Origin: Pseudoscleropodium purum
Lineage: Eukaryota; Streptophyta; Bryopsida; Hypnales; Brachytheciaceae
DNA length: 64,000 bases
Reading direction: 5' to 3'
NCBI GenBank assembly: GCA_963969395.1
Contig: OZ017804.1
Location: 9,300,001 to 9,364,000, forward strand
In this document: positions 8,261-27,229 of the stretch, one piece after another
Position numbering within the stretch: the first letter of the stretch is position 1
Layout: each line of letters begins with the position of its first letter
Translations under genes and position numbers: made by a program
Notes under the pieces: model-generated
The model's database searches: none
What the model saw: the letters and a program-made list of their open reading frames with translations, nothing else
What the model was told of the DNA's origin: nothing

Positions 8261-11095
8261 TTTTTTGGGTTCCCTTAGGAGAACCCTCCTAACAGAAGAA
8301 ACTAACTTGGACTAGATTTCTTTGTGGAATGTATTTTTCAGGTTGGAGCTTGGGAAGTTTGGAGCAAGATCTCCCATGTGAGGGTAGAGACTGACTCAAG
8401 TAACTGGATAATTGTACTCCCCCTCAAGTTCTATCACTAATTTTGGAAGCTATACTCTGGATGTTTCCAAGGATATCTTGGAAACTAGACTCTGGAATGA
8501 AGCCCTAACTAAGTTCAAAGCTTCACCGTTGAGTTGGCTTTAATACCAACTCTAAGACTTCTTTAATCCTCACAGGTTCAAAGCTCAACTGTCTTATGGT
8601 TTTTTAACACACACTCTAAGACTTCTTAAGGTAGGGGGGTCAAAGCCTTGCTGTAGGGCAACTATGGTGCCCAACCTTCAAACGTCCTTATCACTACAAT
8701 CAAGTCTGGCCAATCCAACTAGACATAGCCTCAAAGAAGTTCACTCCCCTCGCACACTAGAGGCCCCCCAAAGCGGCATCGCCAAGGTACGGTGGGAGGT
8801 ATCCCTAGGATTAGTACAACCTTTCTCACACAACCTCATACAATCCCATGGAAGGAAGAACACCCAAACAATATCACCACAATGAGGGTAAAAGTGCTAC
8901 CCTTCAAAGGTGGGACCCAAGCAAACTTCAACCAAACTCTAACAACCACCGTTGCAAGTTTCTTGGCTAAAATGCCAAAAATGCCAACACATATTGGACC
9001 CAATGGATCCCAACAACCAAAATGAAGGGAGGTGATTTTAGAAAGGGAAATGGAGCCTTTAAATAGGTTTCAAGGGACCACTCTCCCCCCTACACTTCTA
9101 CAAGTAACCTTATGTCCTTATCAACTCGGATTTTCATCTTTATCTTCAAAGATTTTCATCCTACTCCTAAACTTTTAACTATCTACTACACGTTGGACCA
9201 ACATCCTAACTTTTGGAGATTAACTCCAAATGCCAAACGGATTACACCATTGGCTCTAGAACACCAACTTTCGTTCGTAATCCCTCTTACCCTTGTGCTA
9301 GGACCAAAATCCCAACAGAAACTAACATGGATTAAAAACCAAGTTGAGATAAATTTCCAAATCTTGGTGGTTCCCTATTTTGAGAAAAGCAACTAGTTGT
9401 GGTCTCCTATAGGTTCAAGGGAGTAAGAAAATTTCCCTTGTTGAATTCAATTCGTTGTCGTGTACTCCTAGAGCACCAATCAACATTGTAGGGTATTGTT
9501 ACATGATTAATTCCTAAAGAATCTGGCCCTTATCGGAATCTTGCCACTATCAGAATGTTGCAAAATTTGATGAAGCGCATTATTATCATAAGACAAGATA
9601 ATCTAATTTTTAATGAGATTTTATCGCAACCTAGATAATTTCCATAAAATTCCCATTGGAGGTTAGAACGGTTGACCACCCAGTTGAAAGTCTTCTACAA
9701 GTCAAAAGATGTCAGGAATTTCCATGAGACCTCTCAAGAAGTCTCATGGGAGGTATATAGGTCCACTTTGTCCTTGGCACCTTGGTCAGTGAGATCCAAA
9801 ATGGCATCTCCTTGAATTGTCAATGGTGTAGGAATCTTCTGCAGATGAAGGAATCTTGGGAAGCTGACTTCACCATTGAACTCCTAGCATGGAATTTACC
9901 TTTAAACACCATCCTTCGGCAATAGATTCCTCCACAGCTCCATTCTTTGGTTGTAGCACCTACATACTAACAATTGGGGTTTCATGGAAATGCATCGGTC
10001 TAATGGGGAATTCAAAACCTAACTCTAGGATCTGACCTATTGGCCTCGTTGTAGATCCTTTTGACCAACTTAGCCATGAATTGCCACATTCATAGGGGGA
10101 ATTAGCCCTTAAGGGGCTATGTGACTCAAACCAGCAAAACCAGCTATCTTGCGATTCTTCTCATAATTTTCAGACTAGTTTGGGGGGGATTCTACATATA
10201 CAATCAAATCTAGACCAAATACTATAATGGATATGTTACAATTCTATTTCGGTTCTACACTCTTTTTATGGCTTTTTGTATACTTTTATCTATTCTAATT
10301 TGTGGTTTAAAACAAAAGAAAATCTATGAGTCCCAAGTGATGAATTGGGAGCTCACAATGATTAAGCTATTAAAATTTTTTTATCTATATATTATTTCCT
10401 TGAAGCATGAATAGGAATTTCTTTTTAAGTTTTTAGTATACATTTCCAACATATTTCTTCAATGTGTAAAGAAAAGTTGCAAGTTCTAGGATTGACGCAT
10501 GCATTTTGGGTAAATTGTTTGAAAGATAAAACCTAACCATTAGGGACAAAATTTTAATTTTTTTTGCTTTGAAGTTTTTACAAGACATCTGTCCAAAGAA
10601 TAACTTTAAGGCACAAAATCTTTTATAACTTTTGATCACATGATTAGAAAGTTACTTCATCATATGTGATTTTCATTAATCTTTGAAGAATTGAAAATCT
10701 TTAAAAAAAATTAAAATAACACTATTTATAGAAATAAACATTTCAATTTGATTTCCTAAATTTATTTTTATATAAAAAGCTTTGAAGTATTCTATTTTGA
10801 TTAATGAGATGGAAACTATAAAGATTTTTAATTTATTGATAGTTGTAAAATTTATACTCTAAAATAAATTTTAATATCTTTTTTGTAACTCAATTTCAAA
10901 TATTGTTGAAGAAGAAATAATAACATTGGATCTACATCATTTATTACAATATTACAAAGTAATCTTGATTGAAATCTTGATTTCTAAATCCTATAACTAA
11001 ATTTTAAAGAACTTTGAACTTTAAACTATAACAATTCCTTGAAGATGTTAATCCTCCAATCACAAGTTATAAGCAAAATGGAGATAAACCTGTAT
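8261..11095. other. Intergenic spacer left of the 13.3-kb element
   Basis: No gene, RNA or intact mobile element can be supported. Open frames at 8,664-9,396 have no recognisable domain. Base composition becomes very AT-rich from about 10.2 kb and changes sharply at 11.1 kb, where the element begins. Confidence 0.45.
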
Positions 11096-11099
11096 TTAA
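11096..11099. repeat. Candidate target-site duplication TTAA, left
   Basis: TTAA directly precedes the left terminal inverted repeat, and TTAA directly follows the right one at 24,400. Because TTAA is its own reverse complement, it could also be part of the inverted repeats. The flanking three bases (TAT on the left, ATA on the right) are also complementary, so the exact edge is uncertain by a few bases. Confidence 0.55.
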
Positions 11100-11144
11100 C
11101 TAATTATGGACAATTGCACAAATTATGGACAAATTCATAGTCCA
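11100..11144 (+). repeat. Left terminal inverted repeat of the 13.3-kb element
   Basis: It starts CTAATTATGGACAA, and after a 19-bp internal duplication (AATTATGGACAA occurs twice, 19 bp apart) continues ATTCATAGTCCA. Apart from this insertion and one mismatch it is the reverse complement of 24,374-24,399. The terminal sequence contains a small inverted repeat of its own, TATGGA-CAAA-TCCATA in the right-end version. Confidence 0.75.
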
Positions 11145-11328
11145 TAGCCACATTAAAAAAGGTAGAAAACATGCTTCAAATGATTAAAAAGTGTCGGCAG
11201 CCCACCCACACCTTGTTCAGAAGAACCAAGGGTACAAAAAAAAAGTGGATTGTTGTATTTTGGACCGGTTTCTATGCAATAGCAGAACCGGTGCCTATGA
11301 CCGTGCACCCATCCCATGCCCATTGACA

Positions 11329-11794
11329 TATAGGCTAGCAGCCGATAAGACAGCATAGTAAAGTGCACAAAACCAAAAAGTAGGACAACGAACAAGAAAG
11401 ATAGAGATGAGCAAATTGCCTGTGCACTGAAGATAAAACAGTTGTAACATGGTCCCCATAGGAGATTCAAATAAATGTGATTTGTCAGCAGCCAACGGAT
11501 ACATATTAAAAATGTCAAACTGACTAGTCATAAGACTTATAGTCACAACCTATAAGATATGAAGGCACACCCTAAAAGATATGAAGGCACATTCACAAAT
11601 GAGTAAATATTGTGGATATGCATGTAATCATCCTGAAGTGAAAACATCCTATTCAAGAACCATACGATCGACATGCAGCGAAGCCCTTAGTATCGGTTGG
11701 CAGCCGACACCTGCAGCGAGGACTTGGATCCGTCTAGCAATGTGATGGTGACATAACTCCAGAGCTAAACTATTGTATCGGTTGGCAGCCGATA
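11329..11794. repeat. Palindrome sites, left end (three copies)
   Basis: Copies lie at 11,329-11,347 (two mismatches to consensus), 11,691-11,709 (TATCGGTTGGCAGCCGACA) and 11,776-11,794 (TATCGGTTGGCAGCCGATA). They lie between the left terminus and the 3' end of the minus-strand gene, the last one ending only 17 bp beyond its stop codon. A degraded half-site is visible near 11,485. No gene lies between 11,145 and 11,810. Confidence 0.85.
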
Positions 11795-11810
11795 GGTCTG
11801 AGGTGATATG

Positions 11811-14800
11811 TCAGTAATCCTCTCCGCCCTCGTCGGCATCTCTGTCCAAAGCTGCCCCCGCGGCCTCCAGATTCGCAATAGCAGCAGCAACGGATGCCTC
11901 TGGGATGACATGAGATGTGGGAGGTCCTTTCTTTGCGTGCGAGGGCATTCTGTGCGAGTACAAGACAATGTTGACATGGACCATCTGCGAAAGACAGAGT
12001 TCCTTGTGCCATCTTCGGGTCCAGCACTCCCTCGCAATGAGCGCTTTTGACTCCCTCTTGGCTTTCATCGGAGTCCACCACTCAATTTTAAAATTACCAT
12101 ACGTGGGCCCCGGAGACATGTCCACACATTGGAGTACTCGTCCCAGCCAGACACGCAGATGATTGTTATGACATGGTCGACAAAGAACAAAGTCTCCGAG
12201 CAGAACATCCTTGAATGGATTGAATCTCAAGCGCGGCCTGTCCTTCGCAGGTCCGTAGTATGGAGTGGGATCCCCTTTGTCCTCCGGAGTGGTGTCTACT
12301 GAATAATTCTCCTCCGCCCCCTTGTCTACAAAAGTCGACGTGTGATCTCTTGTCCAGTCAGAGAGCGGCCATAATCCTTCTTGAAGCAATGCAGGAGTTT
12401 GAGGCAGCGCCGAATTGATCTCCGATTGAATTCTTTCCCAGTAAGCCACACAGCCTGCCATTTCCTGTGCGTACCGTTTATCTCTAGCCATTCCCGATTT
12501 CCAGAATTCAATGAACTTTGCTATTCCGTTTTTGATGAATGTCTGTTTCTCATTGCACTTTGTAGCCCTTGCGACTTCCTTTTCTGCATTTCGCCTTCTG
12601 GTATTAATGTCCACATTCCCCCAGAGTGCCTTGAAAGGCACAGGTCGAGGGTCCCCCTGTGGAATATTGGGTTGTCCATTTTCGTCCGCTGTCCACATTT
12701 TGACAGGTGCGCCAGGAGGCAGCCACGAAGAATCTGTAGCCCTGAGCTTGTACCTCATGACCGGCCATCCACGATCCACACCATCCTCCACGACGTAGAA
12801 CTTGAAGAGGTGTTTATCTCCGAGCCCGATGATTTTGTTCACCCCATCATGATGGAAGCCCTTGAAGTATGATTTGAAGTCCGCCACTTCTTGCACGAAC
12901 TCCGGAATGAAGGCTACAGTCTTCTGTGAATCCATGAACGCCTTCATGAGATCCGCAAGTACGTATGTGTTCTTCCTTTTGATCAGTTTCGAGAGATAAC
13001 TGAAGTGCGCATCAATGTCCTCGTGCGTATGCCCAACAATAAGGAACCCCACTGAAACTTCCTTGAATATGCGCCTGGCAATGAGCAGTGAGCAGAAAGT
13101 CATGAGGAATCGATTTTTGTTGTCCTTTGCTGAATTGTCGAGTTGCAAGAACAGTTTCCTCGGAAGTGGGACTTGAGGTCGTCTTGGTCTCGCTGCGTCG
13201 ATCACCATGTCTGAGGCCTGCGGGATTGACGAGTTGCATCTCGATTTCCCATGAAGCAAAGCCTCGAAGAAGGTGTTTAGCGGTGGAGTGGAGAAGAGGA
13301 TCTTGGACTCCCGAACAGGTGGTAGTTCTAGGGCCCTGAGGACCCTGCAGATGGACGAAATTGTGAAATTTGAATCTCCAGGCCAGAGTGATGTGGAGTA
13401 TTGTGCATACGCGCCATCTCCATGTCCATGTGTGAGCATTCCAGTACACGAGATTGGTATTTGCCCTAGCCCTGCGGTGGCCTTGGTGATGCGCTGCATC
13501 CTCGGAATGGCAGTCTTTGTGGTGTCCATTTTGTCATGAATAATGCAGAGGAAATCTGATGGATTTTGCACCGACTGCACGGTCCATCCATTGTATACAT
13601 TTCTACAAGCGCGGTGGTAATTGAGATGTCTCTCTCTATCGTCGACCAGGGCCTGCCACTCATCACAACCTCTTGGATACTTTGCAATGAATTCTACCAG
13701 GAAGTCACATTCTGTACATTTTGAGAAATTGCTCCCTACGGCCTTGACCTCTACGCTTTTGAAATAAGCATTCCGAAGGCGGCTGATAGCAGACTGCGAG
13801 ACCAGCTTTATATTGCATATTCCATTGACCTGAAGAACATGACTTCATGGATGAGTTTCCATGGAAGACTATAGAGTTGTATCGGCTGGCAGCCGACAGA
13901 ACTGCAAATGACGGCCTATAGAAAGGAAAGATCAATGGCTTCTACATTCAAAGTCCAGACATGATTGTATCGGCTGGCAGCTGATAAAAGGACTTTTCTA
14001 CTGTAGACGAAGAGGCAGATGATGGACTTACATAATTGACTTGTTCGCGCATGTGATCCCAATTCATTGTAGAGGGGAGGACCTTGAGATTGTCGACGCG
14101 TTTATTTCCAACCATTCTGAACTCGTTTGGCATTTTGTCGGCATTGTCGTCGATGATCGTTTTGAGGGTTGCTTGAGCTTGGATTGTTTGTGGCCGTGGC
14201 CGTCGGGCCCCCGCATTTCCATGCGAGCCGTTAACGGATCCTCCCACGGCCGCAGCCTTGTAAACATGATAGGCCGACCTCGATACCTCGTGAATGATAT
14301 ACCATGCGTTCTCGTAGACGTCTGTATTTGCAAGAGTAATGAATTTTTTTCTTGGAATAACCCCTGCATGAAGCTGACTCTGCACCGCATATGCTACCTC
14401 CCTCCTACTCTCGAATGTGCAAGCGAAGAACTTTCGTCGTATAGACCTTGTGTCCTCCTAGGGAAACGTCTGGCAGCATCTGAGCTTACAACACTTCTGT
14501 GAGCTGACCTTACGTACCTCCATCTCCGAGGTCTTCATTTGCAGTCTGGATTGGCTTTCGTGATTCTTGGGAATCACCCTTCTACGCACAGAGCGGTATA
14601 GATTCCTCGGTACCCCCTGCATTCCGTTATCGTCCGACTCATTCAATAGAGTAGCCTCTGAGCAGAGCGTGACAATTTTAGATAGTAGCCTTCCACCCTC
14701 CAACCTTGTGTGTGTGAGCCTCCAGCGCATGGTTGTCATTTGCAGTTCGTCATTGTCCAATACGAACATGACCCCGACATCCGTGTCGCCCAGGACGCCA

Positions 14801-15864
14801 TCATCGCAGGCCTCATCTGGTAGGCAGACTTGGATCATGGCTCTTCTGAGAACCGAGAAGTCGTCATTGAGAAGTTTACAGTATTGATTTCTCCAAAGCG
14901 GTCTATCTGGGATTGGAAGTCCAGCTTGCATTCCATCCGGATGGCCATTATCTCCACTTTGAGTATCAGCTCTAAACGCGTCCGAATGCTCCATACTGTC
15001 AGCAACACTTGTGTCGGACACGGCAGTGCCAAAGGTACTGTAACCATGAACATTGCGGTGATCCTCTACAGACCCGCGGCTGTCATCGTCGGACGAATAG
15101 AGCCTATCATCTCGGTCGTCTTCATCTGATGCAGTAGGAAGTACTCGCTGTGTTCCCGAATCACATAATTCTACCTGTACATTGTTCGAATTCCCACCAC
15201 TCTCGTAGTTACCATCGACTTGAGCCTGCATGAAATGGGTCGCAGGTTCTCCTGTCGGCTGGCAGCCGACAACCTTGGTTATTGGGACGGAGGTCTCGAT
15301 TGGTCTGACCTTATAACCACTCCAGAGTATTTTGAATCCAAAACAACATTTGAGTGTCATGAATTCAGGAATCTCGCAATAAGCACTCTAATCTTGGAAA
15401 TCATCAACGATGTGCAATAGCTTCACAACAAGGAAGAAGCTGTGTGGAACGCGAAAGCCTTCCCAGTAACCCTTCGGAGAGCATTGTACAATTGTACCTA
15501 CACCAGCATACAGCACATCCGTGCCCACAGTCTGCAGTAGTGAGACATCCATATTGACAGTGAGTGACAGGAATTGTTGTATGGGTTTTTCATCTGTGAC
15601 CACTTGTATCGGCTGCCGGCCGACACCAGCAGAAGAAGACCCTTCAGACTCTGCATGAGGATAGATATTCTCTGCCTCCCACACGATTGACCTTCCCGGA
15701 CAGTATCGCAGGAACACCATGTCTCCCTCAGGAAACGGAAGAGGCATATCGAGGTTATTTGGAACGTCTAGGACATGAACGCGTACGAGGTAGGGATCGC
15801 GGCTGACCACCCTTTCTACGACCGCCCTTCCGGAGTAGTATAATCCTTCCAGTGTAAGAGCCAC
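11811..15864 (-). CDS. DUF7869-like (transposase-like) protein, 4 recognised exons, one in-frame stop
   Basis: Exons by frame and splice-site fit: 15864-15310, 15225-14518, 14457-14032 and 13829-11811, all phase 0. Together they give about 1,235 codons. Numbering from codon 15,864, the last exon carries a Cys/His/Arg-rich stretch (CTEC ... DDRERHLNYHRAC, about 600-635). It is followed by HDKMD near 661-665, LDNSAKDNKN near 793-802 and GHTHEDID near 829-836. This is the pattern of DUF7869 proteins, whose spaced aspartates look like an RNase-H-fold transposase core; the catalytic role is inference. Near the C-terminus a segment with VLCRP, VWLGRV and IEWWTP resembles a small beta-rich domain. 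Exon 1 has an in-frame TAG at 15,390-15,388 (codon 159). The true start is unresolved: 15,864 is GTG, preceded by an acceptor-like ATGTAG, so a 5' exon is probably missing. Introns 15309-15226 and 14031-13830 contain palindromes. Confidence 0.75.
13880..13986. repeat. Two palindromes in an intron of the DUF7869-like gene
   Basis: TATCGGCTGGCAGCCGACA at 13,880-13,898 and TATCGGCTGGCAGCTGATA at 13,968-13,986 lie 88 bp apart inside the 202-bp intron 14031-13830. Removing the intron joins frames cleanly on both sides, so the sites are outside the coding sequence. Confidence 0.85.
15253..15271. repeat. Palindrome in intron 1 of the DUF7869-like gene
   Basis: TGTCGGCTGGCAGCCGACA is a perfect palindrome with an odd centre. 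It lies in the 84-bp intron 15309-15226, whose length is a multiple of three and which contains no stop, so retention would keep the reading frame open. Confidence 0.8.
15607..15625. repeat. Palindrome inside coding exon 1 of the DUF7869-like gene
   Basis: TATCGGCTGCCGGCCGACA reads in the gene as V-G-R-Q-P-I. It is one of only two copies that clearly lie in coding sequence. The palindrome has no stop codon in any of the six frames, which lets it sit in an exon. Confidence 0.7.
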
Positions 15865-16023
15865 AACAACTCCCTTCTACATTTTCAGTCTTCCGGAGCC
15901 TCTATTTTTCGTGAATGCCTCAATAGGACTCGCACCCAATGTCTAGTCATCAGATCCACTCATGATTTGAAATAGGAGTCAGAACCCACAATGTCGGAAT
16001 CTTTGTCAGACCCGTGATGACCT

Positions 16024-16172
16024 TATCGGCTGGCAGCCGATACGTCTGTTTACCTGGTGCTTCACGACCTTCCTGGTACAGAAATTGGTATCGACTGGCA
16101 GCCGATACATTTGTGTACTTGGTGCTTTACGACCTTTCTGGTACAGAAATTGGTATCGGCTCGCAGCCAATA
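16024..16172. repeat. Three palindromes on a 65-bp tandem repeat
   Basis: Copies start at 16,024 (perfect TATCGGCTGGCAGCCGATA), 16,089 (one change) and 16,154 (two changes). The spacers are also similar: each reads TACST..TGGTGCTT.ACGACCTT.CTGGTACAG-like, showing true tandem duplication of a 65-bp unit, with the first copy best preserved. Confidence 0.9.
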
Positions 16173-16915
16173 CCACTGTCCGTACGGCAAAGCACAGAGG
16201 CAGGACTGTACAGCTAGAACTTTGGGGATCATGCACGAAGCTAGATTTTGCACTTCCTATGATCTAGGCACTGTCCACAGATGCTCTGACCAGTAAAAAT
16301 AATGAAATGGAAACACATGTGCAACCGAATAGGAAATCTTGAACCTCTGTCAAGCAACTAATTTCCGAGAATGCTCCTGACTACTACTGCAATTAGAATC
16401 CTACTGCAATTCAAATGTAGCTTGGAGCAATTCAAATCCCACTACAAATCCTACGTAAGCCTAAACGCCAAATAACAACTGTCGAAGAGCGCTTCCTGAA
16501 CCCGGAGACTACTCAATGCTGCACTGAACTGAGGTCTACTGAATTCCCTGTCACGTTGCATCCCTCATAAACATTCCACAACAAGCCACTGCAATTCCCT
16601 GACGGTTCTTGGACGCTCTGAGTGCGTGTGTGGGGCAAATGAAAATGGAAGTCCTCCAAGATCTGATCCTAGGTGAGCAAGCCTAAAACTGAATTTGGCG
16701 CCTGAAATTTGAATCTGGAAGAGGATGAAATTGTGGTGATTGCAAGAGAGACAAGTCCGTGCATTGGGAGATCGTGTTGGGAAACGTACGCATCTCTGCA
16801 ATGAATGTTCGTAACTTCCATGTACTTTGCTGGATGTGGAGTACATGCTAATGGATGAAAACCTGCGATGGATGAAATTTATGGAAGAACGGACTCGGTT
16901 TGTCATGATTGCGCC

Positions 16916-16934
16916 TACCGACTAGCAGCCGAGG
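16916..16934. repeat. Degenerate palindrome copy
   Basis: It matches 14 of 19 consensus positions (right half AGCAGCCGA is best kept). It is counted as a weak copy. Confidence 0.45.
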
Positions 16935-16995
16935 GTTTAGGAGGTATACACCCCTAGCCACTTTCATTTTCTCTCATTTGCCATTTGCGTCTCTT

Positions 16996-17080
16996 GCTCT
17001 CTCTCTGTCACTCACTCTCACTCTCACTCACTCTCACTCACTCTCACTCACTCTCAGCCTCACTCACTCTCACTCTACCA
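16996..17080. repeat. CT/CACT microsatellite
   Basis: A pyrimidine-rich stretch of repeated CTCACT units with a short CTCTCTCT run lies in the presumed leader of the ParB-like gene, about 190 bp before its start codon. CT-rich leaders are common near plant transcription starts. Confidence 0.75.
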
Positions 17081-17104
17081 TTCTCCCTCCTTCAGTCCGG
17101 CTTG

Positions 17105-17246
17105 CAGCTGACATCCCCTCGCAAAGCAAAGCAGCAGCCGATACATCCTAGCGCAGCCGATACGCATTTCTGGCCAGCCGACAGTGAAGGAGAGCGAAGC
17201 AAGCGTGCTTTTTCAGCAGCCGACAAGTCATCTTCAGCAGCCGATA
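17105..17246 (+). promoter_or_regulatory. Array of five to six palindrome half-sites in the leader
   Basis: CAGCCGAYA occurs exactly at 17,135, 17,154, 17,175, 17,217 and 17,238, all on the plus strand. A related CAGCTGACA starts at 17,105. The last ends 20 bp before the start codon at 17,267. Half-sites without their partner arm, all in one orientation, differ from the full palindromes elsewhere and suggest a leader or promoter element bound by the same factor. Confidence 0.7.
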
Positions 17247-17266
17247 AGCGACAGAGTCCATTGGCG

Positions 17267-20200
17267 ATGGCGTCCTCCGATTTGGCGATTGAGAGGTACT
17301 TTTCACTACATGTATCGGCTGCCAGCCGATACACTGTCATTTGCTATATCATATAGGATAGCCATTGAGATTCTGAGGCACCTATTACTTGCTATATCGG
17401 CTAGCAGCCGACATACATTGCAACACTTACTAGGAGCCTGAGCTTAAGCTATGTCGGCTGGCAGCCGATATGATCCTGGGACGATTGACTTAGGAATTTC
17501 TAGAAATGTCTTTCGACGGTAGGATTTAGGGACTGAGAGGTTGTATCGACTAGCAACCGATACAGTGGATGCACAAAGTGAAGGTGCATAGTGTGAGTGT
17601 ACTGAGAATTCAATTGTATTATTCTGTAGGAAACCAACTTAGGAATTTCTAGAAATGTCTTCCGACGGTAGGGTTTAGGGACTAAGAGGTTGTATCGGCT
17701 GGCAGCCGATACAGTGGATGCACAAAATGAAGGTGCATAGTGTGAGTGTACTGAGAATTCAATTGTATTGTTCTGTAGGAAACCGACTCTCTTGGCCCGC
17801 CTTCTGGAAAAGCAAATCCCAAACTCTCGGATATTGGGAGACGGGTATCCACCGAGGGCAACATGGCGAGCGATCGAGGCCATCCAAGAATGGGGTCTGT
17901 GTTGGAGGCAGTTACCTGACACGACAGTGGAGATCGTATGCTCCTTCAAGCTGAAAGGGAACATGACCCCTGGCAAAGGAAGTGTATTGTCCGTCATGGC
18001 TGTTGGCGATTCCGTGCACGTCATGATATGCTTGATGCCACTGGGAAGCACGGATGGAGTTGCCAATTATTTCGCGGTGGAGTTGCCGGTGAACAAGTGC
18101 ACGGAGGAGGTCTGTGGAGAGAAGTCAATGTCGATGGGCATGACGTTCGAGGGAAACACGCCGTCCAGTGCAGAGGAGCTCATCCAGGGCTGGGAGTGCT
18201 TGAAGATAGAGCGCGATGAACACAATGCATTCATCGCTCATGAGTTGGAAAAGGGGAAGAAAAAGGTACCCTCGGCAAGGAAGCAAGTGGCGGCGAGAGT
18301 GACTGAAGACGTTGCTACTGATCTACAGGAGACCGGGTCACCCAGCAAACCGAAGAGAAAAGCGAAGGCTAGGGACGACCCCAACAAGCCGCTGAAGCTG
18401 ACACTCGACAAGGCACTCCGGCGTGGAAATCATCTCACAACCAAGACGAAGGAGAACGAGGTGAATGCTATTTACCACGCGTTGGAAACAGGGCTCCTGC
18501 ACGCGTTTCCTTACAAAAAGCAACGTCTTCCGGGGGTCATTCACTCGGACAAATTCCACATTGCACCGGACGAGTTGAAGTACCGGAAGATTGCAAAGGA
18601 CCGACTTGGCCAGGTAATTCGACGATCACTTCCATCCTTTACTGGTTTTTATCTTCCCATATAATGTATCAGCTGGCAACCGACATCTGTAGCTGGTCCT
18701 TAATATTTTGGCCTTCTCTCAATTCAGGTGAAGACCATGTACAAGGGATACAGGTCCATCAAGAAGAAGCCAGAAATCCATGGGATTCCTCTGAAGCGGG
18801 CTCCACTGCCAATGGACAAAGGGCTAGACGCCGTGATGGACGAGTGTCCCGGGAAGGAACAGACTATTGTTGTCGACGGCATCTCAATGCCGTGGTGGAA
18901 GGCGCCAAATATCCACTGGTATATCATTGGTGGGCAACACACAGTGACGGCCTATCGAGAATTGGCCGAGCAATATCTGGACGGCTCTGAAGCCAAAACC
19001 GACCTCCTGGAATTCGAGGTCGTTCCGGTATTCAGTAGAGACCCGGACACACTTGTTAGAGTCTCCAATGCCCTCAATCTCAACATCGCGGAGAAAGTGG
19101 CAAAGGAGACCTTCAAATCCTGCGCAGAGATGGGAAGAGCGGCATGGGTGCAGGCGGGGTACCCAGAGCCGCATCGTGGAGGTGGAAAGCCGTCAACAGC
19201 ATTTGAGGTAATTCCCACGCACCTTTATTTTTTTCTCCCTTTTGATTAATATATTATGTATCGGCTGGCAGCCGATACCATTCTCGCATGTTCTAAACAT
19301 TGCGGTGGAACTCCTCCAAGCTGCGAAGCTGAAGGTGATGGCGCACTTCGTGGATGAGAAGGTGTCCTCCAAGTTGCCCCTCATCTTCATCAAGGAGACC
19401 ACCTGGGTGCTATGGACGGAGGTCTTCGATGCGTGGGAGAACGGGGAGCTTATTGGAGATGATGGGACTGTGCCGAATCTCCTCGTCAATCAAAAGCCGC
19501 TCACTCACATCACCAAAACGGATCTCACGCCAACGCTGGGGCTTCGGGATTCGGATCTGTGCGAGCTAGGGCGGGAGATCGTTGCACTTCGCGTGAGCAT
19601 CAAGAACACCGCGAAGGCCAAGTCCTCGGGGAAGATCACTCTCTTCGACTGGTGCAAGGACAAAAAGCTGGACAGAATCGTCATGAACGAGATCATGTGG
19701 ACCAGGAAGAAGCATCCCCTTCCCTGCAAGGACCAAGGCTGGACCCCATATACTGACGAGGATTGGATGGAGCTTGCTGAAAAGGAGGGGTACTCAGCGG
19801 CCGTAGTCCGAAACGTCTGGAAGGACATGATGAAGTTCACGGACGCCAACAACTAGTTGAAGGGGCGAGTGAACCCTATGAATCCAACGACGGACAAGTC
19901 GAAGGATGGCAAGGCGCTGGGGGTCTTCTTCACGACGTTGGCGAACTACGCCAAAGTCGAAATGCCTCTGACGCGTGGGAAGTCCGCCAACCTGAAATAC
20001 GAATGCTATGTTGGAAAGAGTATTCCTGAGGTGGTCGACTTCGTCCGTCAATCGAAGGGGAATATGGCGCTGGAACCCAAGGACAAAAAATTCATTGTCC
20101 TCTTTGGGTATACAGATATGGGGGAATCGGTTCCAGTGAACAAGAACGATGTGCTCAATCTAGCACTGGCCGCTGAAATCCCTGAGGTGGACGGTCCGAA

Positions 20201-21576
20201 TATCGAGGAGACCGAAGCGTATATCCCCCTGCCAATGCTCCTTATCGGGAACACGCGTTTCCGAGATTCTGTCGCGACGGCCTCGTACTCGTCCTCGTCC
20301 TCCTGGTACTACCATTCGGTGTACTATCAACCATCTCCCCGTGGAGGCTTTCAGAAGGCGGAGATTGAATCCATGCCTTTGGTCACTCTGTCCTTGACCT
20401 TTCCGAAGCCCGAGGACAGGTCTAGTATTTTCCCGGTCTTCAAGCACTTCACTGGGATCAACAAGGCGCCTAACTGGTTCAATGTTGACGTTGAGGGCAA
20501 GGTCGACTGGAATGGCGGGATGTGCGGGGTTGGTCATGGACTTCTAGAGAAACTGATGATGCCGACCCTAAAATCCAAGGATGCCACCATCATCAACATC
20601 TGGGGGGGCGGGAACATCATGGAGATCGCTCTGGTAAGTTTTCTTATCCCTTCCTCACATTTGCATTGTTCAAAGGAAGTGAAATCCTGTCGGCTGGCAG
20701 CCGATACAACATGTTACTCACTTGTACTCCATGGATTCGTAGAGGAATGGGCGGGCCGTCATGGAGTTCGTTCGGGAGGAGGACGGATTGCAGAAGGCCA
20801 CGGAACGTGTGAGGGGAATGAACCTCGTCTCCTCGGCTTCCTTGGGACCTTCTTTGGGGACGTTTGCGCTGACAGACCAAGGGAGCGCAAGCGGATCGGG
20901 GCAAGTGTCGCCTGCGGCATCACATCAGCAACTGCGGCCGATCTTGACCCTCAATCTGATGGAGACTCCCGGTGGCGCGGCGGCGCGGAGACGGCCACAG
21001 GGTCAGTCTCAGGAGCGACCAGCAATTCAGACGTTTTTTATTGACTCAAACAGTGATGACACCCCGGAAGAGACACTCATTCGAAGGCAGTGGCAACGAA
21101 GTCCTTCATCTCCACGGCGTTCTCTCAATCTCCCCCCGGCTCCAAATTCGGAGATGCTCAAGATGCTCCGACCGAAAAATTCATCGGTCACAATGGTCGT
21201 GGACTTGCACGTTCAGCCACCGTCAGAGGAGATTCGCAAGATTCCACAGGCTCCAGTGGTCAGTCCTACGACAGAGCCTCAAGTGGGAGTCACTGCAATT
21301 GGCCACCCAGCTACTACAGCTGACATTAGTATCGGCTACCAGCCGACACCCATGGTGGTTTCCCCGCCTGAACCACGACAGGGAAGAAGCAAGGGGGCCA
21401 CGTTCGAAAAGGAGTCGGAGTCGGCGGACTCGCGGAGGTCAACTCGGGTTCAGCAAAAGCGGAAACGACCGAGTAACGAGGAAGACGGTGGCGCGGCGGC
21501 GCGGGAACATGACTTCCCAAATGAAGCGATGTCTCCCGCTCGATCTCAGAGGCGAGCTCAGACTAGAGGTTCGTAG
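17267..21576 (+). CDS. ParB-like protein with methylase-like C-terminal segment, 5 exons, one in-frame stop
   Basis: Exons: 17267-17295, 17779-18613, 18728-19207, 19272-20633 and 20743-21576, joining in frame to about 1,180 codons. ATG at 17,267 begins a short first exon; AG|G across the first junction restores codon phase. Residues about 190-225 include a basic KPKRKAKAR stretch. The WYIIGGQHTVTAYRELAE segment near 352-369 with a later VSNALNLN matches the ParB/sulfiredoxin-like fold (GGQH equals the G-x-H/R core). Near codon 870-925, GHGLLEKLM, then NIWGGGNIMEIAL and NGRAVMEF, resemble the end of N6/N4 DNA methylases, but I see no DPPY, so activity is doubtful. The C-terminus is Ser/Pro-rich and basic. 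An in-frame TAG at 19,854-19,856 follows codon 642. The acceptor at 19,271 lies inside a palindrome; the next in-phase AG is at 19,328. Confidence 0.7.
17313..17711. repeat. Five palindromes in intron 1 of the ParB-like gene
   Basis: Copies lie at 17,313 (perfect, C centre), 17,395, 17,452, 17,544 and 17,693 (perfect, G centre). All are inside the 483-bp intron 17296-17778, the densest cluster of full sites in the element. The last two are related by the 149-bp tandem duplication. Confidence 0.85.
17490..17787 (+). repeat. 149-bp tandem duplication carrying a palindrome and a splice acceptor
   Basis: Unit 1 (17,490-17,638) and unit 2 (17,639-17,787) are nearly identical, each with a palindrome and the acceptor-like TTCTGTAGGAAACC. 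The palindrome in unit 1 has three changes from consensus while that in unit 2 is perfect. Only the unit 2 acceptor (exon at 17,779) is followed by the long open frame. Confidence 0.85.
18667..18685. repeat. Palindrome in intron 2 of the ParB-like gene
   Basis: TATCAGCTGGCAACCGACA lies in the 114-bp intron 18614-18727, whose edges are CAG|GTAATT and TTCAG|GTG. Confidence 0.8.
19259..19277. repeat. Perfect palindrome overlapping an intron 3' end
   Basis: TATCGGCTGGCAGCCGATA is a perfect copy. The only in-phase acceptor before 19,328 is the CAG at 19,269-19,271 within it, which would make the intron 64 bp and place the right arm (CCGATA, Pro-Ile) in the exon. Confidence 0.75.
20688..20706. repeat. 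Palindrome in intron 4 of the ParB-like gene
   Basis: TGTCGGCTGGCAGCCGATA lies in the 109-bp intron 20634-20742 (CTG|GTAAGT ... CGTAG|AGG). Confidence 0.8.
21330..21348. repeat. Palindrome inside the last coding exon of the ParB-like gene
   Basis: TATCGGCTACCAGCCGACA is read as I-G-Y-Q-P-T in a low-complexity Ser/Pro-rich tail. It is the first of a run of copies whose centre base is C rather than G. Confidence 0.75.
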
Positions 21577-21711
21577 GCGATAGACATGCTCCACGATGTT
21601 TGTGGAGTATCTAAAATAGCTCATGTATACATAGCACTGCCTGGCTCAGACTTGTGCGTAGACTTGTCAGTAGGAGCCTTCATCTCGACAGACTAGAGTA
21701 CTTATGGACTA

Positions 21712-21730
21712 TGTCGGCTGCCAGCCGATA
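21712..21730. repeat. Palindrome between the ParB-like and first HAD-like genes
   Basis: TGTCGGCTGCCAGCCGATA ends 10 bp before the ATG at 21,741 proposed as the start of the first phosphatase-like gene. An alternative in-frame ATG at 21,711 overlaps the palindrome by its TG. Confidence 0.8.
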
Positions 21731-21740
21731 CGGTGCACGA

Positions 21741-22673
21741 ATGTTTTGTCATGTACCTAAGTTCATTGCTTCTCATGCTCTATGTATTTCGTTTTGCAAT
21801 GCAAATGATGACTCCAAAACTTCTGAGAAATTCCCCACCACCGCGTCTGAAGGTTGGCAGGAGTGTGACAAACCAGCTCTAGAAGAAAGGGCAGGGAACA
21901 CGTCTAGTGCTGGCCCGTCTCAGGTAGCGACTCCGAAGTTGTTTCTTTTCCTTGAGGTTCAAGGAACTCTGCTCTTCTATGAGCCCCTTATTTTTAAAGG
22001 GAAAAGTATGCATCAGAGGTCGCAAGTAAGACCTCGACCAGGTCTTCAGGAGTTCATCAGGTTCTGTAAGGGTTAGGACATTCAAATCGTTTATTGGTCG
22101 CATTTACCCAAGAAGACTCTTGAGCAGCGTCTTCATAACCTGAAATGGATGGTACCGGATATCGAAGACGATTACCTGGCTTTTGGACAGGAGTACTGTG
22201 ACGAGAGTGCTTATCGAGACCCTCAGAATCCCACATGACCAATTTTTCTGAAGCGTCTCGCAAGGATTCTCAGGTCATCCTCCTTGTACGATAATGGGGC
22301 CACGATCAACAACTCATTGATCGTGGATCACGAGCCCTATCGGAACGTTTTGAATCAGCCATATAGTGCGATTCATCCACCCCCGGTTACTATGTATTCG
22401 GAAGGTTCGCTGAAGGGTGGAAAACTGCCTTATCTCCAAGCGAAGCTCATCCCGTTCATTGAACAGTTTTTGTCTTCGGGACTCACGGTCCCAGAGTTCT
22501 GTCTAAAGAACTCTTCAGTTGGGAGTGCACGTTGTATGCCGGGCTCTCCTCTTCATAATCAGTTCGTGAATGTGACACCGCCATATCAAAAGGGATTCGA
22601 GGTGCCATATTCACTGGAGGAGCTGCAAGCCATGGGAATTCCTAGCCCACGGGTCCTAATGGAGGAGGCGTAG
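21741..22673 (+). pseudogene. HAD/FCP1 (NLI-interacting factor)-like frame with two stops
   Basis: A continuous frame of about 310 codons is broken by TAG at 22,074-22,076 and TGA at 22,236-22,238. It reads as a NLI-interacting-factor/FCP1-type HAD domain: LFLFLEVQGTLL in place of the usual DxDxT strand, RPRPGLQEFIRFCKG, then IVYWSHLPKKTLEQRL, and later SLIVDHEPYRNVLNQPYSAI near the third motif. Known FCP1-like phosphatases dephosphorylate the RNA polymerase II tail or other nuclear proteins using the two aspartates of DxDxT. Here the nucleophile position is Glu-Val-Gln, so it would be inactive even without the stops. The start is uncertain (21,741 or 21,711). It lies 165 bp downstream of the ParB-like gene on the same strand, inside the element. 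Confidence 0.6.
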
Positions 22674-22675
22674 TG

Positions 22676-23050
22676 TATCGGCTGCTAGCCGACACATATT
22701 TCTGTAGATTGTATATATTCTCTGTAGATAAAGGAGGACGTCTAGAGACTACATCTTTTGTGTACATTATTTTCTTTTGTATTGATTAATCAATTTTCTT
22801 GTAATGAAGGCATTTCAGTCCGATTTTTCCTAAAGCTTGCGCATGGGACACTCACTCTCAAAGCATTCAAATGTTTCCTTTGAGAGTTTCAGCATTAGGT
22901 CTTGACCATTCTAATCAAGTGATCGCAATAATATAGGTGCAGGCATTCACTCATCTGTGCACAATCTATCTGGCACCTTTTGCTTGTTTCTCAATATGAA
23001 TTATTGGCTGCTGTCGTGTGTCAGGCCGCAGTATCGGCTGCCAGCCAATA
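22676..23050. repeat. Two palindromes flanking the spacer between the HAD-like genes
   Basis: TATCGGCTGCTAGCCGACA at 22,676-22,694 starts two bases after the stop codon of the first HAD-like gene, and TATCGGCTGCCAGCCAATA lies at 23,032-23,050. The spacer between them is AT-rich, with polyadenylation-like TTGATTAATCAATTTTCTTG near 22,780, and shows no gene. Confidence 0.8.
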
Positions 23051-23125
23051 TCAACTAGCTTGTCTTCTTTCAGTGGATGTTGATGTTGTATAATCTTGTA
23101 GCTACTAACTCATGTTCTGTTCAGG

Positions 23126-23772
23126 AGTCCAACGTGGGCCATCCACAGTCGTTCAAGAAATGTGTGGTTCTATGCGTCACAGGACTACTTTGTTATCTCG
23201 ACCCGAATATCGAGGTGGACAAGTCGGACCCGCACAGAAATGTCATTAAAAGGCCAGGGCTAGTTGCAATGTTCATGACACTGTTTGAAAAGTTCCACGT
23301 AGGAATTTGGTCCAGGATGCCAATAGTTGATCTTAGGCCTCTGCTTGCGCACTTGCTTCCAAAACATGTCAGAGACAACCTAGCGTTCGTTCATGGCAGA
23401 GAGTACTGTGTAGATAGCCAGAATTTCCCGTGGTACTACAAAATGCTCTCAATACTTCACACTAAGAGACCATCCAGGATGACATGCTTCACGGACCAAG
23501 TGCTCATGGTCGATGTGTACCCACTTTCGCTCAGGAGGACGCCGAATCCGGCGTGCTATATTCCGCTACCATTTACGGGGGATCTCAATTTCCCGAATAT
23601 TAGTAGAGTTATTCCGAACATTTCAACGGATATTATTCCATTCATTTATCCCATGCACGAGCATGAGTCAGTCTCGGAATACATGAAAGGCGCAATCAGA
23701 CCGGGACAATTACACTATGAGGTTGCACAGTCAATCAAGTACGGGAAGCCAAACTGGAATGGGATATTCTAG
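23126..23772 (+). CDS. Second HAD/FCP1-like protein, pseudo-phosphatase, 5' end uncertain
   Basis: An uninterrupted frame of about 215 codons begins at an acceptor-like CTGTTCAG|GAG (23,126); the open frame itself extends upstream to 23,077, and a first exon was not found. The order KCVVLCVTGLLCYLD, KRPGLVAMFMTLFEKFHVGIW, VHGREYCV and LMVDVYPLSLRRTPNPACYI matches NLI-interacting-factor-type HAD domains. The usual DxDxT motif is CVTGL, without aspartate, so catalysis is not expected. It is related to the frame just upstream but diverged, suggesting an old tandem duplication or two recruited paralogues. It might act as a non-catalytic binding protein; that is inference. Confidence 0.6.
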
Positions 23773-23789
23773 TGATTTGCCCTACATGG

Positions 23790-24367
23790 TGTCGGCCGCC
23801 AGCCGATACCCTTGCAGAGTGGAATCGGGGGGGGCTTGAATACCTTCCAATCTCGTCCCCTTTACCTTATTCACAAATTTGAACTGCTTTATTGTCAACG
23901 CCAGTCTTATCGAATCGACTGCCTCTTCACTTCAAGACCTGTTCTCTGGAGTTTTCTTGGGGGGATATCGGCTGCCAGCTGATACGAGCAATTCAGTTCA
24001 TTGGATCGGATGGACTCAGGGTTTAGGGTTTAAGGAGGAGCATTCATTGCTCTTCATCTTATAGATGGCTGCCATAGTCGATTTTCATAGTTTACGTAGT
24101 GCAAACACTTTCATAGATCTAGGTGCTTTAGAGAATGATGTTAGGAATCGGTTGGCAGTATCAGGCGCCAGCCGATACTTTGTTCCAAATTTGGACACAG
24201 CATAGGAGCTTATGAAATTATTCATTTAACTACTAATTGTAGGCTCTGAACTCAATAACTTGCCGTGTGTTGTGGTACTTTGGTTTGTTTAGTGGTTGCG
24301 TCCATTTCTGTTCATTGCTTATGACACACAAATCTATGCATTCGACTATATCGGCTGACGGCCGATT
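23790..24367. repeat. Four palindromes at the right end of the element
   Basis: Copies lie at 23,790 (TGTCGGCCGCCAGCCGATA), 23,966 (TATCGGCTGCCAGCTGATA), 24,159 (TATCAGGCGCCAGCCGATA) and 24,349 (TATCGGCTGACGGCCGATT). The one at 24,159 is joined to an extra left half, AATCGGTTGGCAG, at 24,146-24,158. The stretch 23,809-24,373 shows no supported gene; the last palindrome ends 6 bp inside the right terminal repeat. Confidence 0.85.
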
Positions 24368-24373
24368 TATTTC

Positions 24374-24399
24374 TGGACTATGGATTTGTCCATAATTAG
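24374..24399 (-). repeat. Right terminal inverted repeat of the 13.3-kb element
   Basis: Its reverse complement starts CTAATTATGGACAAATCC and ends ATAGTCCA, matching the left terminus apart from the left-end 19-bp duplication and one base. AT-rich unrelated sequence resumes immediately outside. Confidence 0.75.
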
Positions 24400-24403
24400 T
24401 TAA
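24400..24403. repeat. Candidate target-site duplication TTAA, right
   Basis: TTAA follows the right terminal repeat and matches the TTAA at 11,096-11,099. The same ambiguity about a self-complementary sequence applies. Confidence 0.55.
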
Positions 24404-24759
24404 ATATCAGTTGATAGGTGTTGGAAATAATTTTTTTTATAATTCAGCAAACTTTGGAGGTTGTTTTGGCATAGTAGAAAAACTTTATCAAAAACATTTT
24501 GAAATAATAAAAGTTGGTAATTCAAACAAGCTTTCATCTCTAAAATTCTATTTGAGATTTGGAGATTTTATTCAAGAGTTTTGGACAAATTTCAAAAAGA
24601 GGTTAGGAAATCATTACTTTTGACATTTTTGACGTTTTTGAACATCATCTCTGAATTTTGTCCATAAATTTTGATTGAAGGATCAAAACTTCAAATGGAT
24701 TATTGGAAATAAAAGATTTCTTGAAGATTTAGGCTGAGCTACGCAACTAAAGGCACAAG

Positions 24760-25050: not shown

Positions 25051-27229
25051 TTTCCAACTTCTCTTTGCTCAAAGTTTTTTCCAAAAATTTCTTCAACTAT
25101 GCCAAAACTGCTTCCAAAGTTTGTTGAATTCTTTTTTAAATTTCCTACACTTCTCTAAATTTTGTTTATAACTTTTGATTGAAGAATTGAAATCTGAGAA
25201 GGATTGTTGGAGATGAAAGTTAGTTCAATTCCACAACTTTTTCAATTGAAAGTTTTTTGGAAAAAAGTTCATTTATTATGCACAAATGACCTCCAAATTT
25301 TGTTGACTTTGATGAACACCGAATTGTGAATACTTAATTTTTAAAAAATCTACATTGTACAATGAAGATTTCAAGAGATTTCAAAGAATTTCAAAACTTT
25401 TCAATAAAAATCTATTGATTTTGTCACTGCACTATCCAAATTAATAAAAAAATGTCACCATTAACAAAAAAATGTGAAAACAAACATTGCAATACCTAAA
25501 TCAACAAAAAAAAATGTTGATTTTTTTCTTAAATTAAACATCTATTTCTAGTAGAGAAAGTATCATGATGTTGAGCAATAGATAAGTTCTCCTTAGCCAT
25601 TGGCATGGCCTTTTTGAAGAACTCTACTTGATCATGTAAACATTGAGCTTATATATCAAGATCATCCAAGTTCATAATTGAAGCTAGTTTCTCCTATGTT
25701 GACTTGGATAAAATTAGCTCTTGAATATATAATAACTCATCAAGGTTGTAAGACACCAAAAATCCTTGCAAGCTTGCTAAAGGATCGCTGCAAGAAACAC
25801 ATATTCTATTTTTTGTCCCTTTAATCTCAACCAAGTAGTTCTTGGCTCATAACTTTTGTGTCACATATCCATTTCCTATTAGATTTGAAGGAAAGGTATA
25901 TGTAGTAGTTTTAGATATCTAATAATTTTTCAAAATTTATTTATTATTTTTAAATTTCCCCAAATTAGATGTCTACCTTGGCCAATTCAGGGGGTTTTAG
26001 TACTATTTCCAACCCAAAAATAAAAATTTGAGAGTCAAAATCGATTCACAAGGATTTTACTAAAGTTATATAAACCTATGAGAGATTTTTTTAAAGAAAA
26101 AATTATCCACCTTCTACATGTGCTCAAAGATTTCCAGCTAAGTACACATAAAGAAAACACAATTTTTAATTGACAAAGATGCAAAATGGTTTAAAAGGAA
26201 AATCTTCAAGTTAAAAAACAAATTTTTTTCTTTGAATTTTTTGAGTTTTTTTATTATTTTCTAAAAATCAAATTCAAAAGTATCTATTTTCTTGCATTTT
26301 TCATCACTCTTTTGTTGTGCATAACTTCTAGAGATATATTTTTCTAGGCCTAAATTTTTTTAAGATATACTACTTTGAATGATTTACAAATTTTTCATAT
26401 TTTATTTTATTTAAAAAATATATTATGTTTTAAAAAATTATTCTAAATGTCAAAACACTCCAAAATTGGGGCCCATTTTGAGTAAAAAATGGTAGGTGTT
26501 TCTTGCAACTACCCTAAAATGATAGCCAATAGTAAGCCATAGCAACATTAGGTTCCAATTACAATGGTTGTTGTGAACAACCAATATTTTTATAAATCAC
26601 ACTTGACTATTTAAACAATCCACTTAATCATATTAGTCATCTGCAATAGGATGATCTTTGGAAGCATTGAGATAATCTATCAAGCTTTAGTGCACACTTC
26701 TTCAAACAAACCAAGGAATTCCCGCCTTTGATTAGTCAACACCTCAATAGGTGCTTCAAAATGTATCAAAACACAATAATAATAAAAGTTATAATTTCCA
26801 ACTTTGAAGAGTTTTGTGGTAGAGTCATAAATTCAATCCATTCATTGAAATATTTCACCATCACTAACATACACTTAGTTCAATGTGAAATGACCACAAG
26901 TAGCCTACTAATCTACTATAGTTGAAAGACCAATGGTAGTCCTAGCCTATAATAAGTAAAGGCTTCAACAAGGTGATAAGGTATTCAAACTTGTCATGTC
27001 CTAATCACACACCTATACTAAGAAACAGAAGTAGTAACAAGCTTATACATGCCAATCCACTAATATTAGTTGTGCAGTATGGAATGTATCATGTGCACTC
27101 TAAAATGTCCAAGGTCCATTGCGCACCAGAATGGATTGCCAATGGATGACTTCATTATTTAATTGTAGACAAAGAGAATGCATCCATCAGCTTAGCAATC
27201 AAAGAATTTTACTTACTACCTTAGTTTGT
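25051..27229. other. AT-rich spacer, no gene recognised
   Basis: The 25.1-25.3 kb part shares 'taacttttgattgaag' and neighbouring motifs with 24.6-24.75 and 6.6 kb, indicating a dispersed AT-rich repeat. The remainder has no open frame with recognisable features. Confidence 0.4.

What the first reader, a model, noticed from the sequence alone, without database searches (positions are those of the whole stretch)
11329..24367. Twenty-seven copies of a 19-bp palindrome confined to one 13.3-kb element
The consensus TRTCGGCTGSCAGCCGAYA (9-bp arms, one centre base) occurs at 11329, 11691, 11776, 13880, 13968, 15253, 15607, 16024, 16089, 16154, 16916 (weak), 17313, 17395, 17452, 17544, 17693, 18667, 19259, 20688, 21330, 21712, 22676, 23032, 23790, 23966, 24159 and 24349. 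I saw none outside the element's termini. Four are perfect TATC..GATA forms, and most deviations are single bases. Only two clearly lie in coding exons. Transposase sites are usually subterminal; even scattering through introns and spacers over 13 kb is unusual and suggests a spread-out protein-binding platform.
Basis: seen in the sequence. Interest (0 to 1): 0.92.

Follow-up and report, generated by a model that had tools for sequence, protein, structure and literature searches.

The report
Moss transposon with dispersed palindrome tags
A large, decayed moss-type jumping gene carries about two dozen copies of one 19-letter palindrome, mostly in its non-coding DNA, and relatives carry the same or a matching altered palindrome at the same places, as if each element marks itself along its length with binding sites for one of its own proteins.

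Summary
26 copies lie within 3 mismatches of the consensus (0 expected), plus one weak copy, all between the 21-bp terminal inverted repeats of a 13.3-kb element. They are not evenly spread: 23 of 26 lie in the third of the element outside my exon models, and spacing is no more regular than random.

The element is a decayed DNA transposon, probably from a moss. Its minus-strand gene is DUF7869, predicted to fold as an RNase-H/DDE transposase. Its plus-strand protein has no assigned family.

The site is a family trait. Read-through of intron 3 in relatives carries a site peptide within one residue in 23 of 29 cases (about 0.2 expected). Coding sites have counterparts in Ceratodon and Physcomitrium, the latter with a matched change in both inner arms. 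A distant DUF7869 contig (32% identity) has its own 21-bp palindrome, 12 copies, none in the ORF.

Best reading: family-specific cis sites for an element-encoded protein, used to recognise and control the element along its length, like VANC in VANDAL transposons. The binder is unidentified; ParB similarity was tested and is not significant. The own-genome scan could not be run.

The parts
11093..11113 (+). left terminal inverted repeat (21 bp identical; TTAA, TA and AT all possible as target duplication)
24386..24406 (-). right terminal inverted repeat
11811..13829 (-). DUF7869 transposase gene, last exon (DDE core)
   Evidence: splice sites read
14032..15948 (-). DUF7869 gene, upstream exon region, approximate; in-frame stops
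   Evidence: (47, 46 and 45% identity to P0007, P0008, P0012)
17267..21577 (+). plus-strand gene, 5 modelled exons (17267-17295, 17779-18613, 18728-19207, 19272-20633, 20743-21577), about 1180 codons incl. one in-frame TAG; exon 3 conserved in relatives, no family assigned
21889..23772 (+). third gene, NIF-type phosphatase-like, in-frame stops, approximate limits
17135..17246 (+). five half-sites CAGCCGAYA at 17135, 17154, 17175, 17217, 17238, one orientation, ~20.7 bp steps, upstream of ATG 17267
11329..11347 (+). palindrome 1
   Evidence: 2 mm
11691..11709 (+). palindrome 2
   Evidence: 1 mm
11776..11794 (+). palindrome 3
   Evidence: 1 mm
13880..13898 (+). palindrome 4, intron of DUF7869 gene
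   Evidence: 0 mm
13968..13986 (+). palindrome 5, same intron
   Evidence: 1 mm
15253..15271 (+). palindrome 6, coding; counterpart motifs in relatives
15607..15625 (+). palindrome 7, coding; counterpart motifs in relatives
16024..16042 (+). palindrome 8 (perfect), 65-bp tandem unit
16089..16107 (+). palindrome 9, 65-bp tandem unit
16154..16172 (+). palindrome 10
   Evidence: 2 mm
16916..16934 (+). palindrome 11, weak
   Evidence: 12.4 bits; not within 3 mm
17313..17331 (+). palindrome 12 (perfect), intron 1 of plus gene
17395..17413 (+). palindrome 13, intron 1
   Evidence: 1 mm
17452..17470 (+). palindrome 14, intron 1
   Evidence: 0 mm
17544..17562 (+). palindrome 15, intron 1, 149-bp tandem unit
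17693..17711 (+). palindrome 16 (perfect), intron 1, 149-bp tandem unit
18667..18685 (+). palindrome 17, intron 2 (P0001 has two translated copies there)
19259..19277 (+). palindrome 18 (perfect), intron 3; predicted 3' splice site inside it
20688..20706 (+). palindrome 19, intron 4
   Evidence: 0 mm
21330..21348 (+). palindrome 20, coding exon 5
21712..21730 (+). palindrome 21
   Evidence: 0 mm
22676..22694 (+). palindrome 22
   Evidence: 1 mm
23032..23050 (+). palindrome 23
   Evidence: 1 mm
23790..23808 (+). palindrome 24
   Evidence: 1 mm
23966..23984 (+). palindrome 25
   Evidence: 1 mm
24159..24177 (+). palindrome 26
   Evidence: 3 mm
24349..24367 (+). palindrome 27, next to right terminal repeat, centre A
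   Evidence: 3 mm

Best explanation
The palindromes are family-specific cis-acting binding sites of a DUF7869-type DNA transposon. A protein encoded by the element, probably as a dimer on the two arms, binds them along the element's length. Candidates are the DUF7869 transposase or the plus-strand protein, with neither singled out. The sites sit mostly in spacers and introns and are densest around the region between the two divergent genes, so bound protein would mark the element as self, regulate or de-silence its genes, and could also bring the ends together for transposition. Shown: the sites, the element, their non-coding bias, and site-like peptides at the same places in relatives. Inferred: protein binding, which protein, and the outcome.
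For: 26 sites against 0 expected, confined to the element within the window. Sites avoid exons (3 of 26 in 67% of the length). The site is in the same intron of relatives: of 29 translated intron-3 tails of 24 residues or more, 5 hold an exact translated TG- or GG-type palindrome (any centre base) and 23 one within one residue, against shuffled means of about 0.005 and 0.2. P0002 has a site peptide, and a second one with one mismatch, upstream of its DUF7869 exon, and P0001 has two in intron 2. Coding site 15607 aligns with counterparts in P0007, P0008 and P0012; counterparts of 15253 lie in the same stretch in P0007 and P0012, where the alignment is gapped. P0012 reads GGPP where the window reads GRQP and GCQP, as expected if CTG/CAG changed to CGG/CCG on both arms. 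A 32%-identical DUF7869 contig, L003, carries a different palindrome of similar build (10-bp arms, G/C centre in the three best copies): 12 sites within 7 mismatches against 0.42 expected, 0 of 12 inside the 963-codon ORF. Phased half-sites abut the plus-gene start. Precedent: VANC21 binds a short motif in non-coding parts of VANDAL21 and lowers methylation across the element (PMC5735166, passages).
Against: No binding data. The compensated change is read through amino acids, not DNA. Ceratodon's coding motif VGCPPT would be asymmetric. Of the 29 tails, P0154 and five members of the large clade score worse than one mismatch, and in that clade the usual peptide (SADGRY) is one residue off any symmetric TG or GG site, only P0130 being exact. 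No known DNA-binding domain was found in the plus-strand exons by Pfam or, for two pieces, NCBIfam. The L003 consensus was made from L003 itself, and the contig is filed as cyanobacterial, so its source is uncertain. The own-genome scan was not possible. Spacing is not even.
Confidence: 0.6

Rival explanations
1. They are ordinary transposase-binding sites that multiplied by local duplication; only those near the ends matter, the internal ones are by-products.
For: Two 65-bp tandem units and two 149-bp tandem units each hold a site. Neighbouring sites share the central base. In L003 the sites lie on both sides of the single ORF.
Against: Intron and coding sites recur at homologous places in relatives, so the internal sites are kept or constantly renewed.
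Confidence: 0.2
2. Sites for a host factor or host small RNAs (insulator, repressor, or a 21-nt silencing target), not for an element protein.
For: The core is 19-21 bp long. 19 of 31 deviations from the consensus are C>T/G>A, as expected of methylated, silenced DNA.
Against: Relatives show different inner bases and L003 a wholly different site, which a conserved host factor would not explain. Nothing outside the element in the 64-kb window matches.
Confidence: 0.1
3. RNA hairpins acting in transcripts, for instance in splicing.
For: All four modelled introns of the plus gene and the modelled DUF7869 intron hold a site, and one predicted 3' splice site lies inside a site. Matched arm changes also fit a stem.
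Against: A two-fold symmetric site with one centre base is the usual form of a dimer's DNA site (recalled). 14 of the 31 deviations are G>A on the + strand and 5 are C>T; from 17267 on it is 9 and 2, so A-C mismatches outnumber the tolerated G-U in the plus-gene part; but this copy is decayed, so the point is weak. Same-orientation half-sites in steps of about two helical turns cannot form the hairpin on their own.
Confidence: 0.08
4. The palindromes are themselves tiny mobile inserts, like palindromic mini-elements.
For: Many dispersed near-identical copies.
Against: The flanks printed show no evident target duplication; one coding copy is at an aligned place in the window and three relatives.
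Confidence: 0.05

Closest known systems
VANDAL21/VANC21 anti-silencing system of Arabidopsis (PMC5735166, passages read; PMC10398659, abstract and section list)
   Same: A DNA transposon with a transposase gene and a second gene; short motif repeated in its non-coding DNA; motif differs between related families; effect spreads over the element.
   Different: VANC21 motif is 9 bp and targets often form tandem repeats; here it is a 19-21 bp palindrome with mostly dispersed copies. The transposase is DUF7869. No VANC homology was tested and no binding is shown.
En/Spm (CACTA) TnpA and its subterminal motif repeats (recalled; the one search found nothing on it)
   Same: Many copies of one motif bound by an element protein, linked to transposition and demethylation.
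   Different: TnpA motifs are subterminal; here introns and spacers over 13 kb carry sites.
Bacterial parS/ParB partition sites (recalled)
   Same: Short palindromes repeated in a region, bound by a dimer that can spread.
   Different: ParB homology of exon 3 was tested and is not significant; eukaryotic transposon.
DUF7869 (PF25273) protein family
   Same: The minus-strand gene is a member.
   Different: Pfam gives no function, and the name was in none of the papers searched; here it reads as a DDE transposase fold.

Membership tests
DDE/RNase-H-type DNA transposon | RNase H-like catalytic core | tested here: met
DDE/RNase-H-type DNA transposon | conserved acidic catalytic residues | tested here: met
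   Of 41 aligned rows, with gaps left out: D104 35 of 35, D236 39 of 39, E275 38 of 39, D276 39 of 39. Which three form the triad is inferred from the fold
DDE/RNase-H-type DNA transposon | terminal inverted repeats | tested here: met
   21 of 21 bp
DDE/RNase-H-type DNA transposon | target-site duplication | tested here: inconclusive
   TTAA, TA and AT all fit the junctions (read); no empty site available
VANDAL/VANC-type anti-silencing element | family-specific motif repeated in non-coding DNA | tested here: met
VANDAL/VANC-type anti-silencing element | Mutator-like VANDAL transposase and a VANC gene | tested here: inconclusive
   the transposase matched DUF7869 and no other Pfam family, so it is not filed as a VANDAL; no VANC sequence was compared
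VANDAL/VANC-type anti-silencing element | element protein binds the motif and removes methylation | not testable with these tools
   needs protein and plants
ParB/parS partition system | ParB N-terminal domain | tested here: inconclusive
   hhalign score 11.9; 84 of 200 column-shuffled controls scored as high or higher, and the reversed profile 12.7; no ParB family in Pfam for 40 members. The best alignment pairs IIGGQHT with the ParB G-E/H-R-R box, and sulfiredoxin is one of seven PDB rows at E 0.73, not the best
ParB/parS partition system | palindromic repeated sites | tested here: met

The most novel reading that the evidence does not exclude
DUF7869 elements are an undescribed lineage of large plant-type DNA transposons in which every family carries its own address code: a ~20-bp palindrome with one centre base repeated through its introns and spacers. 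The code and its reader protein coevolve by symmetric arm changes.
Probability: 0.25. Interest if true: 0.85.

Novelty: new variant of a known kind. Interest (0 to 1): 0.68.

Why it matters
How a transposon protein finds only its own copies, and how that specificity changes without killing the element, is an open question; the VANC authors list it among the most enigmatic features of their system (PMC5735166, passage). Here the sites are long, symmetric and partly inside coding exons, so protein and sites can be followed side by side in mosses. A model moss, Physcomitrium patens, carries a relative with the altered motif (P0012), so the question can be tested at the bench. It also gives a likely role to a domain of unknown function.

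Tried and rejected
Own-genome scan: the genome search was tried ten times with the same request and never answered. So confinement to this element family in the host genome is untested.

ParB idea: raised from the look of exon 3. Tested by Pfam on 40 members, by PDB profile, by single-member PDB searches, by PHROGs (best E 0.0085, a family of unknown function), by tblastn in phages (best E 8), by a fold model of poor confidence (pLDDT 58.8; two searches gave nothing usable), and by hhalign against 12 ParB domains with controls. Not significant; kept only as an unproven hint.

Methyltransferase idea for the plus-protein C-terminus: from memory of a motif; Pfam found nothing in the piece given. 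Dropped.

Viral contigs: two stretches with an exact palindrome (L001, L002), not pursued; my rough estimate, not computed in a call, is that chance could give them. No relatives of exon 3 or of DUF7869 there: 0 of 105 and 0 of 38 candidate stretches. In genome contigs 3 of 47 candidate stretches encode a DUF7869 relative. L003, L004 and L005 hold no exact copy of the core TCGGCNNNNNGCCGA.

Even spacing of the full sites: not supported. A hit in P0154 (SAASR) is a coding coincidence; P0154 was counted as lacking the site. In one search two members of the large clade (P0162, P0188) fell into the 'others' group by my pattern, so about 21 of the 29 tails are from one clade; the pooled 23 of 29 does not depend on this. 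Of the 74 proteins scanned (P0001 and the 73), 30 had no recognised exon end and 15 had tails under 24 residues and were dropped before the count; two of those 15, P0129 and P0191, also show a site or near-site peptide.

The first protein search used the first 929 residues of the plus protein, region 1-900, and scored 7989 candidates; only P0001 passed. P0001's best local match covers 18% of the query.

Literature: the listings of searches, seen only in the rows shown, gave no account of this element or site, and one search found no paper with the name DUF7869; only open-licence papers are held.
Full report
What was checked. The 27th, 16916, is weak (12.4 bits). A weight matrix over the whole window found no hit above 5 bits outside 11192-24349. 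The element is bounded by a perfect 21-bp inverted repeat, 11093-11113 and 24386-24406; the target duplication cannot be fixed from one copy.

Where the sites are. 23 of 26 lie outside exon models that cover 67% of the element (p = 7e-9). Every modelled plus-gene intron has at least one, intron 1 has five. The densest 2.5 kb begins near 15200, with 11 sites, around the start regions of the two divergent genes. Just upstream of the plus ATG are five half-sites in one orientation in steps of about 20.7 bp (p = 0.0035, chosen after the fact). The central base splits the element: G on the left, C on the right; the breakpoint was chosen afterwards and some neighbours are duplicates, so this is a lead only. 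Gap lengths look random.

Relatives with the same site. A search with the plus protein found P0001 (69% identity over the matched part, 18% of the query), whose predicted protein runs through introns; its intron 2 encodes two copies and intron 3 one copy of the site. A profile search with exon 3 found 73 further relatives. Of the 74, 29 run at least 24 residues beyond exon 3. Of these 29, 5 carry an exact translated TG- or GG-type palindrome with any centre base (4 of 10 and 1 of 19) and 23 carry one within one residue (9 of 10 and 14 of 19); shuffled means for the latter are 0.06 and 0.17. About 21 of the 29 belong to one clade, so these are not independent. Across all 191 proteins, exact TG-type peptides occur 11 times and GG-type 3 times, against 0.2 each in shuffles (maxima 3 and 2) and 0 for reversed peptides; one TG hit (P0154) is a coding coincidence.

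A site that changes on both arms. The window's coding site 15607 (VGRQPI) aligns with VGCPPT in Ceratodon P0007 and P0008 and with VGGPPI in Physcomitrium P0012; the 15253 site (VGCQPT) has VGCPPT in P0007 and IGGPPT in P0012 in the same stretch, though the alignment there is gapped and P0008 lacks it. P0008 has VGGPPT where the window's DUF7869 intron holds two sites. GGPP is what TRTCGGCGGSCCGCCGAYA encodes, that is, the outer arms kept and the inner bases changed in step. Ceratodon's CPP would be asymmetric, which does not fit the simple picture.

A distant relative with its own site. L003, a 4.3-kb contig filed under a cyanobacterial MAG, encodes a DUF7869 protein in an open frame of 963 codons, 32% identical over 600 columns. 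It carries TTTAGCTCGASTCGAGCTAAA, 10-bp arms and a G/C centre in the three best copies: 3 copies within 3 mismatches (0 expected) and 12 within 7 (0.42 expected, at most 2 in 100 shuffles), none inside the ORF. The consensus comes from the same contig and the host is unknown, but the build matches. As only DUF7869 is visible there, it favours the transposase as binder a little, though the contig may be cut.

Mechanism. Two-fold symmetry, a single centre base, half-sites in helical phase, avoidance of exons and matched change between lineages all point to DNA sites of a dimeric protein that belongs to the element. The closest studied case is VANC21, which binds a 9-bp motif in non-coding parts of VANDAL21 and lowers methylation over the whole element, with motifs that differ between families (PMC5735166, passages). 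I therefore propose self-marking and gene control, with end-pairing as a possible further use. Which protein binds is open. My own first guess, a ParB-like domain in exon 3, did not pass its tests.

What stays open. The decisive host-genome scan could not be run. Binding, the binder, the effect and the DNA of the Physcomitrium sites remain to be shown.

Noticed in passing
window 17488-17785: 149-bp tandem duplication (94% alike) mostly inside intron 1 of the plus gene; each unit holds one palindrome and a copy of the 3' splice-site region.
   Followed up: partly
window 16024-16153: 65-bp tandem duplication (89% alike), each unit starting with a palindrome, upstream of the DUF7869 gene.
   Followed up: no
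window 11017-11087 and 25151-25221: Inverted 71-bp repeat (75%) just outside the left end and about 740 bp beyond the right end, and another at 24441-24534/25037-25130: the element seems to sit within older repeats.
   Followed up: no
window 21889-23772: NIF-like gene inside the element with in-frame stops; where I would expect the DxD motif of such phosphatases (recalled) it reads EVQGT, so it may be a dead enzyme.
   Followed up: no
window 19259-19277: The predicted 3' splice site of intron 3 lies inside a perfect palindrome (GGCAG/CC).
   Followed up: partly
L005:4972-5149: 89-bp perfect tandem repeat with palindromes CTTGTGTTCG-TTTC-CGAACACAAG near the contig end, on a MAG contig with a weak DUF7869 match.
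   Followed up: no
L003:1-4327: A contig filed as cyanobacterial encodes a DUF7869 protein otherwise named here only from mosses and a liverwort: possibly contamination of the MAG.
   Followed up: partly
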